Source: Williamwhitmania sp. (GTDB lineage Bacteria; Bacteroidota; Bacteroidia; Bacteroidales; Williamwhitmaniaceae). From it: DNA of 64,000 nt. Location: positions 1-64,000 of the forward strand of contig DATKVT010000073.1 in assembly GCA_035529935.1 (NCBI GenBank). Direction: 5' to 3'. Positions 43,697 to 48,848 of this stretch are shown here, one piece after another. Positions within the stretch are counted from its first letter, which is position 1; every line of letters starts with the position of its first letter. A program made the translations under genes and the position numbers. Below the pieces are notes generated by a model. The model searched no databases, had not been told where the DNA came from, and saw only the letters and a program-made list of their open reading frames with translations.

Positions 43697-44206
43697 CTAC
43701 CATGCTAATTGATGGTTATATAGCTTCACTTTAATGTCTTTAATTTTTTGGTAAAAGAAGCGTTCAGAAATTCGTATTTCCCTTATGCGTTCTTGCAGTT
43801 CGGTAAAATAGTTCATGGAATTGCCCGACTTGAAACGCTCATCGTTCAATGCAAAGCCTTTTACAATATACTCTTTAAGCCTTTGGGTTGCCCAAATACG
43901 GAACTGCGTACCTTGTTGTGATTTAACCCGGTAGCCAACCGAAATTATAACATCGAGGTTGTAATGGTTTACATCGTAAGTTTTACTATCGTTTGCAGTT
44001 GTCCGGAAATTCCGGACAACTGAATTTTCGTTCAACTCGCCTTCTTTGAAGATGTTGCTAATATGCTCGGATATGGTACGTTTGTCCTTATTAAAAAGCA
44101 TACCCATTTGGGCTTGTGAAAGCCAAACGGTTTCTTCTTCGAGGCGAACATCAATTTTGATGCTGCCTTCTGAGTTTTGGTATATGAGAATTTCGCCTGT
44201 ATTCAT
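43697..44206 (-). pseudogene. Truncated RhuM-family gene
   Basis: 169 residues. The N-terminus matches the virulence RhuM family: ILIYQNSEGSIKIDVRLEEETVWLSQAQMGMLFNKDKRTISEHISNIFKEGEL, then FRIWATQRLKEYIVKGFALNDERFK and ISERFFYQKIKDI. Complete members run to about 330 residues; here the frame changes to KVKLYNHQLAW and stops, so the C-terminal half is missing. The family is common in accessory islands next to restriction or Fic/Doc genes; its function is not established. Starts two bases after the dinD remnant. Confidence 0.75.
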
Positions 44207-44213
44207 GATTAAA

Positions 44214-44422
44214 TTAGTCTTTTTTGCCTTTTATTTTTTCGCGCCTCAGCTTTTCTTCGGTTTGCGTTGTACAGAACATGTTGGCGGCTAAATTCGGTGC
44301 TACCCGTTTGGTCTAGAATGTTTTGGCTCATTTTTTAGGCCTTCCTTTTTATGAATGCCTTTGGCCTTGAGACCACCACATAAGCCCATGTAGCTATGAT
44401 TTTGGAATATAGCATAAACAGG
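44214..44422 (-). pseudogene. dinD: Frameshifted remnant of a dinD gene (DNA-damage-inducible protein D)
   Basis: Read with frame changes, the minus strand gives YMGLCGGLKAKGIHKKEGLK, then SQNILDQTGSTE, then LAANMFCTTQTEEKLRREKIKGKKD and a stop. This is the DinD pattern (GLYGGL-x-x-KDIH ... KKSQ-x-ILD-x-MGSTELAANLFRATQTEEKLRRE). The three blocks lie in different frames and both the N-terminal part and the C-terminal QTHFEVGKKVR part are gone. DinD is a BRO-family SOS protein in E. coli. Decayed gene in the accessory island. Confidence 0.7.
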
Positions 44423-44625
44423 TTCTATAACACCTGCATTGGCAAGCTCAATGGGCCTTAGTATTAACCTTTCCGTTAGTAAGTTCATCTCTCCTGCTAC
44501 TTAGGCTGTTTGCCGTAATGCATTTATCTGTAGCCTAAAATTATGCAATATATCCCAAACTCACGAGCCCGAAATCCATTTCCTACCCATTATTTTGCTC
44601 TCTCCGAAGACCGCTTCTTTTTCTT

Positions 44626-45170: not shown

Positions 45171-45224
45171 ACTCTTTGAAAAAGCTTTGGTTGAAGCGTT
45201 GGCTCGTGGGGCTTTGGCAATGTG
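45171..45224. repeat. Left copy of 54-bp direct repeat flanking the DUF262 cassette
   Basis: 45 of 54 bases match 48901-48954 without gaps. The last 28 bases (CGTTGGCTCGTGGGGCTTTG...) differ at one position only. An 8-bp inverted repeat (CTTTGCAA 45163-45170, TTGCAAAG 45226-45233) brackets this copy. Confidence 0.75.
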
Positions 45225-45390
45225 CTTGCAAAGTTCATCGCATTTTGTGTGATTTGAAAAAATTGAAAAGCAAATTTTCATCCACACAATCAAAACGGTT
45301 GTATTGACTATAATGCCTTTCTACAAAAGCATTCACAAAACAATTGTGTTATATGGACTTCTAAACCCTTTTCTGTTGTGTCTATTTTCA

Positions 45391-46260
45391 TCAATGAAAT
45401 TCATAATGACCTTTACAAGCAATAAATGTTACTATATTATTTTCAACTGTATAGCTAAGTCTATCACCATCAGGGTAGCTGTTTGTTACTCTTTTTGATG
45501 CTTCTTTTCCTCTGCCTTTTAAATTTTCAGTCTGTCCCATTCCACCAGTAAAAGGATGAATTTGAACATCTTTCATCAGAAGTAATAAGTATTTAAAAGT
45601 TTTAAAATCATCTTTTTTCCAGTTCAGAAACTGCGTCATAAAATCATCTGTGAATACAGGTTGATACTTTGTAAAACCCAGATACTTTGTCAATATTTCT
45701 TTGGCATCAATGAATTTGGGCATTGACATATCAGCCCATTCTGTTATTTCCTGTGTATTAATATCACTTTCCAAGCAAATATTATAGGCAACAAAGTCAA
45801 TGTTTTCAGTTGCATTCGCGGTGCTTTTTCTGACGATTATTTTTCTATTCCGCCAAAACAAATTAGAATCTAAACTTATTGAAGGAATAGTTTTTATATG
45901 ACTAACTGGCAAGCCAATAGGTTCGGTATCTGTAGGAATATTATCACCAATTAAAGCATAATCACTCTCAAAAAAGGCATCTAATTCAGCTTCTTCCAAT
46001 TCGTCTGTAAATGGCTTTTTGCAAAGGTCAATGATTAAATTCTTAATAGTTCTGTTAGTAAGTGTTGAAACCCATTCAAAGAATGTTTCTGTTGTTGTTA
46101 TTTGAAGTGCAGCGTAATCTTTCGGGAAATGAATATGAGTGAATCCATAAACCTTTTTAGCTTCTTTAAATGTTGCTAAAAGCTTTCTGAAACCAACCTC
46201 TGCAATCTGACCATTCTGTGCAATCGGATAAATTGATAATTCGTTAAATACTAAATTCAT
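45391..46260 (-). CDS. Protein with unknown N-terminal domain and C-terminal YoeB/RelE-type toxin domain
   Basis: 289 residues. Residues 1-200 match no domain I can name (it starts MNLVFNELSIYPIAQ, mixed alpha/beta). From about residue 203 the sequence follows YoeB toxins: WKKDDFKTFKYLLLLMKD, HPFTGGMGQTENLKG, RLSYTVENNIVTFIACKGHY. The YoeB catalytic residues Glu46, Arg59, Arg65, His83 and Tyr84 correspond to Glu245, Arg257, Arg267, His285 and Tyr286. YoeB cuts mRNA at the ribosomal A site. No stand-alone antitoxin is adjacent. The gene is 4 nt after the ATPase gene and is the last of a three-gene operon, so it is the likely effector (inference). Confidence 0.8.
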   Translation of the reverse strand: MNLVFNELSIYPIAQNGQIAEVGFRKLLATFKEAKKVYGFTHIHFPKDYAALQITTTETFFEWVSTLTNRTIKNLIIDLCKKPFTDELEEAELDAFFESDYALIGDNIPTDTEPIGLPVSHIKTIPSISLDSNLFWRNRKIIVRKSTANATENIDFVAYNICLESDINTQEITEWADMSMPKFIDAKEILTKYLGFTKYQPVFTDDFMTQFLNWKKDDFKTFKYLLLLMKDVQIHPFTGGMGQTENLKGRGKEASKRVTNSYPDGDRLSYTVENNIVTFIACKGHYEFH

Positions 46261-46264
46261 AGGA

Positions 46265-47617
46265 CTACAAAAGTTTTAATAATTGGTTACTCCATTCGTC
46301 CATCATGTTTTCGGGATAATCACTTAACTCTCCACTGCTATCAACTTTTATAGGCGTGATTTTCGTATATTGCTCTTTCTCGGTGGTAGTCTTTTCAAAA
46401 TACATTACATTGACTTTGGATTTATCAATATCTCCTTCTTTTACTGCAACTCTGATTCCATTTAAAATATGGTCACTATGTGTTTCGATAAATAATTGTG
46501 CTCCAAGGCTTGCTGCTAAAGAAATAAGCTTACCCAATTGTGCTTGACCTCTTGGGTGTATGTGCGATTCAGGGTTTTCTATAACTATGATTTTGCCTTC
46601 TTCTGCAGTAAGTAATGCCAAAACTATTGGTAATACATATGAAATTCCGAAACCAACATTTTTTGGTCGGAACGAGTTGGTTTTTTGATTGCCATAATCA
46701 AATTGATAATCCAGAATTACTTTGTTAACTTCGGGAACGTATTTGGTATTTAATGAAACACCTGGAGAAATTTCTGTAAGCCACGCATTAATTTGTGCAA
46801 GCAATTTTTCAGATTTAGCAGAAGGGTGTCTAAGTTGTTCTCCAACAATATGTTCAAGCCCAAATATATCAATATAGTGGGCAGCAAATTCTCCTAGTAA
46901 TCCTAATTGTTTTTTATCCTCAACAACTATGCTGGATGACTCATATAAATCTTTAGGGCCAATCCGTTCTGCACTTAGGTATTGAAACTTTTTGGTCTGG
47001 GATCTAAAAAACCCCATAGCCGTTTTAGTATACTTTTCTTTAGAAATCAGTTTGTCTTTATCTTTTTGATATAAGAATTTCCACTTAAAAGTATTATATA
47101 TTGCTTTTTCAAATTGTGCCTTATTATTTTTTTGTTTATGCTCAATAATTAAACCTGAAGAAATTAATAAATCCTTAGTATTATAAAATGTAGCTTTACT
47201 GATATGAGAAGATTCGGCCATTCTTAAATATAAAGCGTCAATGTCAAAAGCACCGTCTATGGAATAAATTTCTTTTAAAATAGCAAATCTCTCAGGAGTT
47301 TTTCTTTGATTAGTGCCGTCTAAATATTTAGTAAAGATCTTTTCTATTGAATTGTAGTCAAATTCTAAATGAAGATAAATAATATCTTCTGAAGCAAACT
47401 GATACAATGCATCTTTACCTTGACCAATTTTTGCCAATAAGCCATTAAGATCAATTACACCATCCTCCAATTTGTCACTTTGCATTAGCAAAAGCAAGGT
47501 TTGTATGAACGAACTTTTACCCATTCCATTTAATCCCATCAACAGATTTAAGTTTGAAATACTTACATTAGCCACTTTAAGGGATTTGAAATTCTGGATT
47601 TCAATTTGTTTTATCAT
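46265..47617 (-). CDS. DUF3696-type AAA ATPase with inserted Fur-like winged-helix domain
   Basis: 450 residues. The ABC/SMC-like ATPase starts IKQIEIQNFKSL, with Walker A GLNGMGKSS (28-36), Walker B IIVIENPESHIHP (343-355) and H-loop ETHSDHILNGIR (378-389). It ends with the DUF3696 tail (IKVDSSGELSDYPENMMDEW). Between residues about 104 and 172 sits a segment that reads as the DNA-binding domain of a Bacteroidota Fur protein (RKTPERFAILKEIY, DIDALYLRM, ISKATFYNTKDLLISSGLI), without the Fur metal-binding C-terminal half. It overlaps the DUF262 gene by 4 nt. Probable ATP-driven sensor or regulator of the operon's effector. Confidence 0.85.
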   Translation of the reverse strand: MIKQIEIQNFKSLKVANVSISNLNLLMGLNGMGKSSFIQTLLLLMQSDKLEDGVIDLNGLLAKIGQGKDALYQFASEDIIYLHLEFDYNSIEKIFTKYLDGTNQRKTPERFAILKEIYSIDGAFDIDALYLRMAESSHISKATFYNTKDLLISSGLIIEHKQKNNKAQFEKAIYNTFKWKFLYQKDKDKLISKEKYTKTAMGFFRSQTKKFQYLSAERIGPKDLYESSSIVVEDKKQLGLLGEFAAHYIDIFGLEHIVGEQLRHPSAKSEKLLAQINAWLTEISPGVSLNTKYVPEVNKVILDYQFDYGNQKTNSFRPKNVGFGISYVLPIVLALLTAEEGKIIVIENPESHIHPRGQAQLGKLISLAASLGAQLFIETHSDHILNGIRVAVKEGDIDKSKVNVMYFEKTTTEKEQYTKITPIKVDSSGELSDYPENMMDEWSNQLLKLL

Positions 47618-48744
47618 GCTTCTAATGTTTCTTTTATTATTCTCTCAATACTTGAAAAACGATAATAAACACTTCCTTTATTACCTGTTGATGTAGTAAT
47701 ACTATTAAAAAAAGCCAAATCCTCTTTTATAAGTTTAATTGATTTCCCAAACAAAATATCTTTCTTGATAAGCAATTGTATTCTCTGATTTTCATCAAGT
47801 TTAGCAAGTGAAACACTCCAAATTTCAAATAATGCTTTGTTTATTGGTTTTCTCTTTTCAGGATATTTGTCTGATTTACGAAAAGCCCAATTGCCAAATA
47901 TCTTTTTAGTTAATATCATTGATGCTGAAAAATCGCTCTTCATTTTTTCTCTTTCTGAGTTTGAGAGTTTTTTAATATCACCCATACAGGAATTCATAAA
48001 AGTATCTAAATCAGGAATGTAATTTTCATAATTATTCAAATAGAAAGTAATAAATCTTGTAACAAATTCTCTGTCCAACATTCGTTTTGGACTAATTGCC
48101 CCTTGTGTAGCTTCAATAAATTCAGGAAGTTGTGACAATTCTTTTACATAAATTGCAGGAATTCCCTGATTCATAGCGTGACGGATTTCTTGAGGTTCCA
48201 TTATCAATCCTCCTGTATTTACCCGCCTGAAAATATTGAACTTTACTTCTTCTGGCGTCCCAGGATTAATGACATAGGCTGTAATTTGAGCTTCTTCAAT
48301 TTGTCGCTGAAGGTTTCTTGGAAGGTCGTCAAATCCATCCCCTTCAAGTTTTTTCAAAAATTCAAGGCCGGTTAGCTTCAGTCTTTTATTTATTGTAAAA
48401 TTCCTAATGGCACTAAGGCGTTGAAGTCCATCTACAACTAACCATTTGTCATTGTCTGTTCCGTCAAAATAAAAGGCAGGCAATGGAAATTTAATTAGTA
48501 AGGATTCTATTAATCGACTTTGTTTGCCAGCATCCCACAAATCATCCTTTCGTTGAAAATCAGGATACAAATCTATTTCTGGTGGATCTGTTTTTAACCT
48601 CTTTATTAATAAATCAATTGTAAGTGTCTTAGTCGATATATCAATTTGTGAAGGATTAAATGGTCTCTCCATCAAAACCCCTGTATTTATGTCCTCATAC
48701 TCCACTTGAGGCTCATCAACTATATAATTGCTTTCTTCTTGCAT
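47614..48744 (-). CDS. DUF262 (GmrS/ParB-like) protein
   Basis: 376 residues. DUF262 landmarks: DFQRKDDLWDAGKQSRLIESLL (about 64-85), the VVDGLQRLSAIRNF motif (D-G-x-Q-R, about 103-116) and FRRVNTGGLIMEPQEIRHA (about 175-193). This fold is shared with ParB/Srx proteins and with the N-terminal part of GmrSD restriction enzymes, where it binds and hydrolyses NTPs. There is no DUF1524/HNH nuclease domain, so it is not a complete GmrSD enzyme. First gene of the three-gene operon; its stop overlaps the ATPase start. Confidence 0.87.
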   Translation of the reverse strand: MQEESNYIVDEPQVEYEDINTGVLMERPFNPSQIDISTKTLTIDLLIKRLKTDPPEIDLYPDFQRKDDLWDAGKQSRLIESLLIKFPLPAFYFDGTDNDKWLVVDGLQRLSAIRNFTINKRLKLTGLEFLKKLEGDGFDDLPRNLQRQIEEAQITAYVINPGTPEEVKFNIFRRVNTGGLIMEPQEIRHAMNQGIPAIYVKELSQLPEFIEATQGAISPKRMLDREFVTRFITFYLNNYENYIPDLDTFMNSCMGDIKKLSNSEREKMKSDFSASMILTKKIFGNWAFRKSDKYPEKRKPINKALFEIWSVSLAKLDENQRIQLLIKKDILFGKSIKLIKEDLAFFNSITTSTGNKGSVYYRFSSIERIIKETLEA

Positions 48745-48755
48745 TATTCTACACT

Positions 48756-48848
48756 TTAAAATACAAACTTATAATATTTCTTCATAACCGCTTCATTAGT
48801 CATCATCTCTTTGTATTCTCTAATTAGTTCAATTTTATCTTTTACAAT
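48756..48848 (-). pseudogene. Short open-frame remnant upstream of the DUF262 gene
   Basis: After a TAG at 48849-48851 a frame of 30 codons runs to TAA (48756-48758), reading IVKDKIELIREYKEM...MKKYYKFVF, charged and helical like the tail of a larger protein. It has internal Met codons but no upstream start. It may be the surviving 3-prime end of a lost gene or chance. Not assigned to a family. Confidence 0.25.

What the first reader, a model, noticed from the sequence alone, without database searches (positions are those of the whole stretch)
45394..45654. YoeB-type ribonuclease fused to the C-terminus of a 200-residue unknown domain
The C-terminal segment aligns along its whole length with YoeB, including counterparts of Glu46, Arg59, Arg65, His83 and Tyr84 (Glu245, Arg257, Arg267, His285, Tyr286). 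Stand-alone YoeB is about 85 residues with a separate YefM antitoxin; here no antitoxin is adjacent and the toxin is tethered to a large N-terminal domain. That domain may be the built-in inhibitor or the link to the ATPase.
Basis: partly seen in the sequence, partly recalled or inferred. Interest (0 to 1): 0.8.

Follow-up and report, generated by a model that had tools for sequence, protein, structure and literature searches.

The report
Menshen-type defence effector carrying YoeB ribonuclease
The gene is the third part of a three-gene bacterial anti-virus system (Menshen, also described as ptuXYZ), whose last protein carries an RNA-cutting toxin domain of the YoeB type; this layout is already published, but here it links the two names and shows that the toxin part is an exchangeable cassette.

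Summary
ORF 45391-46260 (-), 289 aa, ends in a YoeB domain (Pfam 6e-11). The '200-residue unknown domain' is the conserved N-terminal part of NsnC. The gene closes an operon of NsnA (DUF262), NsnB (AriA-like ATPase, DUF3696) and NsnC, i.e. Menshen. The same architecture was published in 2025 as ptuXYZ, so this is a new member of a known kind. The Menshen paper of 2025 (Li et al.) was not readable here.

Added here: (1) ptuXYZ and Menshen are the same kind of operon. (2) NsnC is an exchangeable cassette: two operons with 94% identical NsnB and 97% identical HsdM/HsdR carry NsnCs only 25% identical, one YoeB-type, one not. (3) The commonest NsnC tail in my sample, invisible to Pfam, is predicted to fold like YoeB (Z 8.2). 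(4) nsnABC repeatedly sits inside type I restriction operons; the window keeps hsdS and hsdR remnants.

Most likely mechanism (inferred): NsnB with the NsnC N-terminus holds the toxin inactive; infection sensed by NsnA/NsnB releases an mRNA-cleaving ribonuclease and infection is aborted. No separate antitoxin is present. No activity was tested.

The parts
45391..46260 (-). nsnC / ptuZ-like gene, 289 aa: N-terminal NsnC domain (about residues 1-195) plus C-terminal YoeB-type domain (residues 203-286)
45394..45654 (-). YoeB-type ribonuclease domain (residues 203-289); E245, R257, R267, H285, Y286 match YoeB E46, R59, R65, H83, Y84
45676..46260 (-). N-terminal NsnC domain, shared with NsnC proteins that carry other C-terminal tails
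   Evidence: PADLOC NsnC 1e-29; alignment; profile comparison 96% probability, E 1.9e-9
46265..47617 (-). nsnB / ptuY-like ATPase, 450 aa (AAA_15/AAA_21 + DUF3696), Walker A GLNGMGKSS and ENPESHIHPRG present, with an inserted Fur-like winged helix at about residues 104-172
   Evidence: (PDLC03878 1e-105; AriA model 6.5e-31)
47093..47353 (-). Fur-like winged-helix insertion inside nsnB, absent from the other NsnB proteins sampled
   Evidence: Pfam FUR 1.5e-6
47614..48744 (-). nsnA / ptuX-like DUF262 (GmrSD_N) protein, 376 aa, nucleotide-pocket motif DGLQR at residue 105; its end overlaps the nsnB start (ATGA)
   Evidence: (PDLC03877 6e-132)
48777..48833 (-). remnant of the hsdS C-terminal end directly before nsnA (IELIREYKEMMTNEAVMKK, 79% over 19 aa to L003 HsdS)
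45217..45391 (-). frameshifted remnant of the hsdR N-terminus directly after nsnC (begins MKIDTTEKGLEVHITQ), E 1e-13

Best explanation
The protein is the effector (NsnC/PtuZ) of a Menshen-type anti-phage operon. Shown by sequence: operon order NsnA-NsnB-NsnC, a conserved NsnC N-terminal domain, and a YoeB domain with all catalytic counterparts conserved. Inferred: NsnB, an AriA-like ATPase, together with the NsnC N-terminal domain keeps the YoeB domain inactive, in place of a YefM antitoxin. A trigger sensed by NsnA (DUF262 NTPase fold, perhaps modified phage DNA) or by NsnB frees the YoeB domain. It then cuts mRNA, probably at the ribosomal A site like YoeB, stops translation and aborts the infection. 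NsnC genes are exchanged as whole cassettes, so the toxin can be replaced while the NsnB platform stays.
For: All three proteins match PADLOC NsnA/NsnB/NsnC at 6e-132, 1e-105 and 1e-29. The YoeB domain is full length with invariant E245, R257, R267, H285, Y286 and is better conserved than the N-domain (72% against 48% mean pairwise identity); dN/dS is 0.03 over the C-domain in the more diverged pair L003/L005 and 0.07-0.08 over the N-domain in both close pairs, with high dS in places. Six further YoeB-type NsnCs, all with NsnB directly before them. Cassette exchange: L003 and L077 share HsdM 97%, NsnB 94%, HsdR 97% but NsnC only 24.5%, with about 90% DNA identity in the genes on both sides of nsnC. 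Another NsnC tail type, without any Pfam match, is predicted to have the YoeB/RelE fold: YoeB 2a6r Z 8.2, 82 residues, 2.2 A; the top 20 rows are all RelE/YoeB/HigB/ParE-type toxins, best clearly unrelated row Z 4.2. A third tail type matches the C-terminal part of a CARF effector profile (CARF7--CARF_DUF2103, 2.5e-7). No antitoxin gene alongside. Published precedent of an AriA ATPase ring sequestering a translation-blocking nuclease until triggered (PARIS; PMC11455837).
Against: No activity, toxicity or phage-protection data for this operon. The AlphaFold model of the window protein is poor (mean pLDDT 53.5), so its fold search is uninformative. TIGR02116's equivalog cut-off is not reached. 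The L002/L004 pair shows a higher dN/dS in the C-domain (0.38), though on very few changes. That NsnB or the N-domain is the inhibitor is analogy only.
Confidence: 0.72

Rival explanations
1. Self-inhibited toxin: the N-terminal domain alone acts as a fused antitoxin, and NsnA/NsnB are only loosely connected.
For: No separate antitoxin; toxin and N-domain are in one chain in all seven homologues; YefM-YoeB fusions exist (PMC11980606).
Against: The same N-domain is found with unrelated tails, so it is not a YoeB-specific antitoxin; NsnB is always directly upstream in the YoeB-type loci.
Confidence: 0.15
2. The YoeB-like domain no longer acts as a ribonuclease and serves as a docking or RNA-binding module; another component does the damage.
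For: Equivalog cut-off of TIGR02116 not reached; no activity data.
Against: All catalytic counterparts are invariant in seven homologues whose N-domains differ at about half of their positions.
Confidence: 0.08
3. The operon in this genome is a decaying relict without function: the surrounding restriction operon is gone apart from two end fragments.
For: hsdS and hsdR remnants on both sides; Fur-like piece inserted in NsnB; truncated RhuM gene next door.
Against: nsnA, nsnB and nsnC are all full length and open; Walker motifs, DGLQR and the YoeB catalytic residues are intact.
Confidence: 0.1

Closest known systems
ptuXYZ (Gerdes 2025, mBio, PMC11980606)
   Same: DUF262 protein + PtuA-like ATPase + two-domain protein with an N-terminal domain (called PIN-like, without catalytic residues) and a C-terminal YoeB-related BECR domain; 17 operons shown.
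   Different: The paper does not connect ptuXYZ to Menshen (no mention). The window ATPase has an extra Fur-like insertion, and the operon lies between hsdS and hsdR remnants.
Menshen (NsnABC; Millman et al. 2022; Li et al. 2025 NAR gkaf357, neither paper held)
   Same: All three proteins match the PADLOC NsnA, NsnB and NsnC profiles, in the same order. That PADLOC's Nsn names stand for Menshen is my own knowledge.
   Different: The NsnC profiles that match the window protein match only its N-domain (1-180); the YoeB tail is not covered by them. Whether Li et al. describe this tail could not be checked.
PARIS (AriA/AriB)
   Same: Related AAA_15-type ATPase (NsnB matches the AriA model at 6.5e-31) paired with a nuclease; AriA sequesters AriB until a phage anti-restriction protein appears, and AriB blocks translation (PMC11455837).
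   Different: AriB is a TOPRIM tRNase, not a YoeB domain; PARIS has no DUF262 protein.
YefM-YoeB toxin-antitoxin
   Same: The C-terminal domain is a YoeB-type domain with the catalytic residues.
   Different: No YefM, toxin fused to an NsnC domain, part of a three-gene defence operon.

Membership tests
YoeB/Txe toxin family (domain level) | Full-length match to the YoeB profile above the curated cut-off | tested here: met
   Pfam PF06769 42.6 bits, cut-off 27, 80/80 positions; the stricter TIGR02116 equivalog cut-off (51.8) is not reached at 37.1 bits
YoeB/Txe toxin family (domain level) | Catalytic residues E46, R65, H83 (plus R59, Y84) | tested here: met
YoeB/Txe toxin family (domain level) | YoeB/RelE fold | tested here: inconclusive
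   model of the window protein too poor; weak matches only, HigB2 Z 2.4, barnase Z 3.0
YoeB/Txe toxin family (domain level) | Ribosome-dependent mRNA cleavage | not testable with these tools
   needs an experiment
YefM-YoeB type II toxin-antitoxin module | Stand-alone ~85-aa toxin next to a YefM antitoxin gene | tested here: not met
   toxin fused in a 289-aa protein; flanks hold hsdS/hsdR remnants, no antitoxin gene seen
Menshen (NsnABC) | NsnA (DUF262), NsnB (DUF3696 ATPase), NsnC in one operon | tested here: met
Menshen (NsnABC) | NsnC homologous to the known NsnC profiles | tested here: met
   N-domain 1e-29, profile comparison with other NsnCs 96% probability over columns 1-232; the tail is not covered
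Menshen (NsnABC) | Protection against phage | not testable with these tools
   needs an experiment
ptuXYZ | DUF262 protein, PtuA-like ATPase, PtuZ with a C-terminal YoeB-like domain | tested here: met
   searches compared with the description in PMC11980606; no direct sequence comparison with its 17 operons was made
ptuXYZ | PIN-like N-terminal fold without catalytic residues | tested here: inconclusive
   [quoted passage not shown] no Pfam PIN match

The most novel reading that the evidence does not exclude
Menshen operons act as a back-up guard of type I restriction: they sit inside hsdMSR operons, sense that restriction has been blocked or bypassed, as PARIS does with Ocr, and then release an exchangeable translation-blocking ribonuclease, most often of RelE/YoeB fold even where no sequence family recognises it.
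Probability: 0.25. Interest if true: 0.7.

Novelty: new member of a known kind. Interest (0 to 1): 0.45.

Why it matters
Menshen's damaging activity is not established in anything I could read. The YoeB-type NsnC, and the cryptic YoeB-like fold predicted for the commonest other tail in this sample, make ribonuclease attack on translation a direct and testable prediction for Menshen. The natural cassette exchange in otherwise near-identical operons separates platform from effector without any laboratory work. Nesting inside type I restriction operons suggests what the system might be watching.

Tried and rejected
Stand-alone toxin-antitoxin reading: rejected, no antitoxin gene and the operon is NsnABC. 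Structure of the window protein: the AlphaFold job with 7 homologues gave pLDDT 53.5, and Foldseek and VIA-align searches with it gave nothing above noise. Profile comparison of the YoeB-type tail against the 'HLPT' tail found no sequence relation (hhalign probability about 2%), so their likeness rests on the predicted fold alone. Relatives in viral contigs: none. In plasmids only the YoeB part matched, to ordinary YoeB toxins, though NsnABC operons with other tails are there. Li et al. 2025 on Menshen and Millman et al. 2022 are not held. Promoter/terminator scan no better than shuffles. A literature search for DUF262/DUF3696 genes inside type I restriction operons found nothing directly on point.

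Full report
Observation. The ORF at 45391-46260 on the minus strand codes for 289 aa. Its C-terminal part, residues 203-286, matches the whole Pfam YoeB model (6e-11, 42.6 bits, cut-off 27) and solved YoeB chains (8yxv 2e-8, E. coli YoeB 3e-4). In seven homologous proteins all five are invariant. The stricter NCBIfam equivalog cut-off is not reached (37.1 of 51.8 bits), which is not surprising for a fused, divergent domain.

What the rest is. Residues 1-180 match PADLOC's NsnC at 1e-29. The gene directly upstream (46265-47617, AAA_15 + DUF3696) matches NsnB at 1e-105, and the next (47614-48744, DUF262/GmrSD_N) matches NsnA at 6e-132. nsnA and nsnB overlap by four bases (ATGA) and nsnC starts four bases after nsnB. 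This is a Menshen operon (that the Nsn names belong to Menshen is my own knowledge). Key motifs are present: DGLQR in NsnA, GLNGMGKSS and ENPESHIHPRG in NsnB. The three genes have 32-34% G+C outside the insert, against 44% for the window.

Already described. Gerdes (mBio 2025, PMC11980606) described ptuXYZ: a DUF262 protein, a PtuA-like ATPase and PtuZ, a PIN-like N-domain without catalytic residues followed by a YoeB-related domain, in 17 operons. The paper does not mention Menshen. A 2025 paper on domain polymorphism of Menshen exists but is not held, so I cannot say whether it describes the YoeB tail. I therefore rate the finding as a new member of a known kind.

Relatives. Five homologues came from the genome collection (48-58% identity) and one more from the phylum sample, all with the YoeB tail and NsnB directly upstream. 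The YoeB domain is more conserved than the N-domain: 72% against 48% mean pairwise identity. For L003/L005 dN/dS is 0.03 in the C-domain and 0.08 in the N-domain, with high dS, so the values are rough.

The tail is exchangeable. NsnB searches in Bacteroidota and NsnA searches in plasmids gave 52 downstream proteins of NsnC size for classification. They fall into YoeB-type (7; enriched because the search began there), an 'HLPT' type (20), a 'TTGRN' type (4) and 21 unclassified, some of which belong to more distant systems. The N-domains are homologous: the profile comparison of YoeB-type and HLPT-type proteins gives 96% probability, E 1.9e-9, over columns 1-232. The clearest case is L003 against L077: same order hsdM-hsdS-nsnA-nsnB-nsnC-hsdR, with protein identities HsdM 97%, HsdS 68%, NsnA 70%, NsnB 94%, NsnC 24.5%, HsdR 97%. 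DNA identity drops to about 50% over nsnC, with about 90% in the genes on both sides. One carries the YoeB tail, the other the TTGRN tail. Conversely L003 and L005 share NsnC at 82% while their NsnA are only 47% identical.

Other tails. The HLPT tail has no Pfam match. An AlphaFold model of one such protein has pLDDT mostly 75-91 over residues 194-309. Its structural neighbours in the VIA-align second look are headed by YoeB (2a6r, Z 8.2, 82 residues, 2.2 A), RelE, HigB and ParE, and drop to Z 4.2 for the first clearly unrelated entry. Plain Foldseek ranks RelE chains with probability only 0.6-0.7 and poor E-values, so this is a good but not conclusive indication. Sequence profiles do not connect the two tails. 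The TTGRN tail matches the C-terminal third of a CARF-effector profile (2.5e-7), which again suggests an effector module.

Inhibition. No antitoxin-like ORF was seen next to the gene. Directly downstream is a frameshifted hsdR N-terminus (E 1e-13), and directly upstream of nsnA an hsdS C-terminal tail (79% over 19 aa). In L002, L003, L004 and L077 hsdS and hsdR genes lie at just these places (hsdR is shortened in L002). So the window operon most likely once sat in a type I restriction operon of which only the two ends remain, while nsnABC is intact. Restriction genes or remnants also match near NsnABC in L005, L015, L027, L037, L054 and L078.

Mechanism. Shown: operon, domains, residues, conservation, cassette exchange, nesting. 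Inferred: NsnB holds NsnC, through its N-domain, with the toxin inactive; a trigger sensed by NsnA or NsnB frees it; the YoeB domain cuts mRNA and stops translation. The precedent is PARIS, where the AriA ring sequesters AriB until the anti-restriction protein Ocr arrives (PMC11455837), and NsnB matches the AriA profile (6.5e-31). Nesting in restriction operons makes a similar trigger attractive but unproven.

Limits. The model of the window protein itself is poor, so its fold is supported by sequence only, and the PIN-like nature of the N-domain could not be tested here. Tail class counts come from a convenience sample. No activity has been measured.

Noticed in passing
window 47093-47353 (-), inside nsnB: A Fur-like winged-helix segment (Pfam FUR 1.5e-6) is inserted in frame in the NsnB ATPase; none of the other sampled NsnB proteins has it, and its best other match in the own genome (contig C209) is only 53% identical.
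   Followed up: partly
window 48777-48833 and 45217-45391 (-): Remnants of hsdS and hsdR flank nsnABC; hsdS-nsnABC-hsdR arrangement in L003, L004, L077, and restriction genes or remnants beside several other NsnABC loci.
   Followed up: yes
L003 1-12764 against L077 1-10000: Natural exchange of nsnC (YoeB-type for TTGRN-type) in otherwise near-identical operons; HsdS and NsnA also differ.
   Followed up: yes
L007 1501-2337 (NsnC, residues 167-278): The TTGRN tail matches the C-terminal part of the CARF7--CARF_DUF2103 effector profile (2.5e-7), so an NsnC tail is shared with a CRISPR-associated effector family.
   Followed up: no
L041, L046, L067, L068, L070-L073 (gene after the NsnB-like ATPase): Distant NsnB-like ATPases are followed by small proteins that start like PIN domains (xxDTNxx), possibly related to the ancestor of the NsnC N-domain.
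   Followed up: no
window 43697-44206 (-) and 44300-44488 (-): Truncated RhuM-family gene (Pfam 1e-41, first 101 of 252 positions) and a short ORF that looks by eye like the start of a GNAT acetyltransferase, next to the island.
   Followed up: no
L076 11789-13780 (-): A 663-aa protein that looks by eye like a DUF262 type IV restriction enzyme lies close to another YoeB-type NsnABC operon.
   Followed up: no
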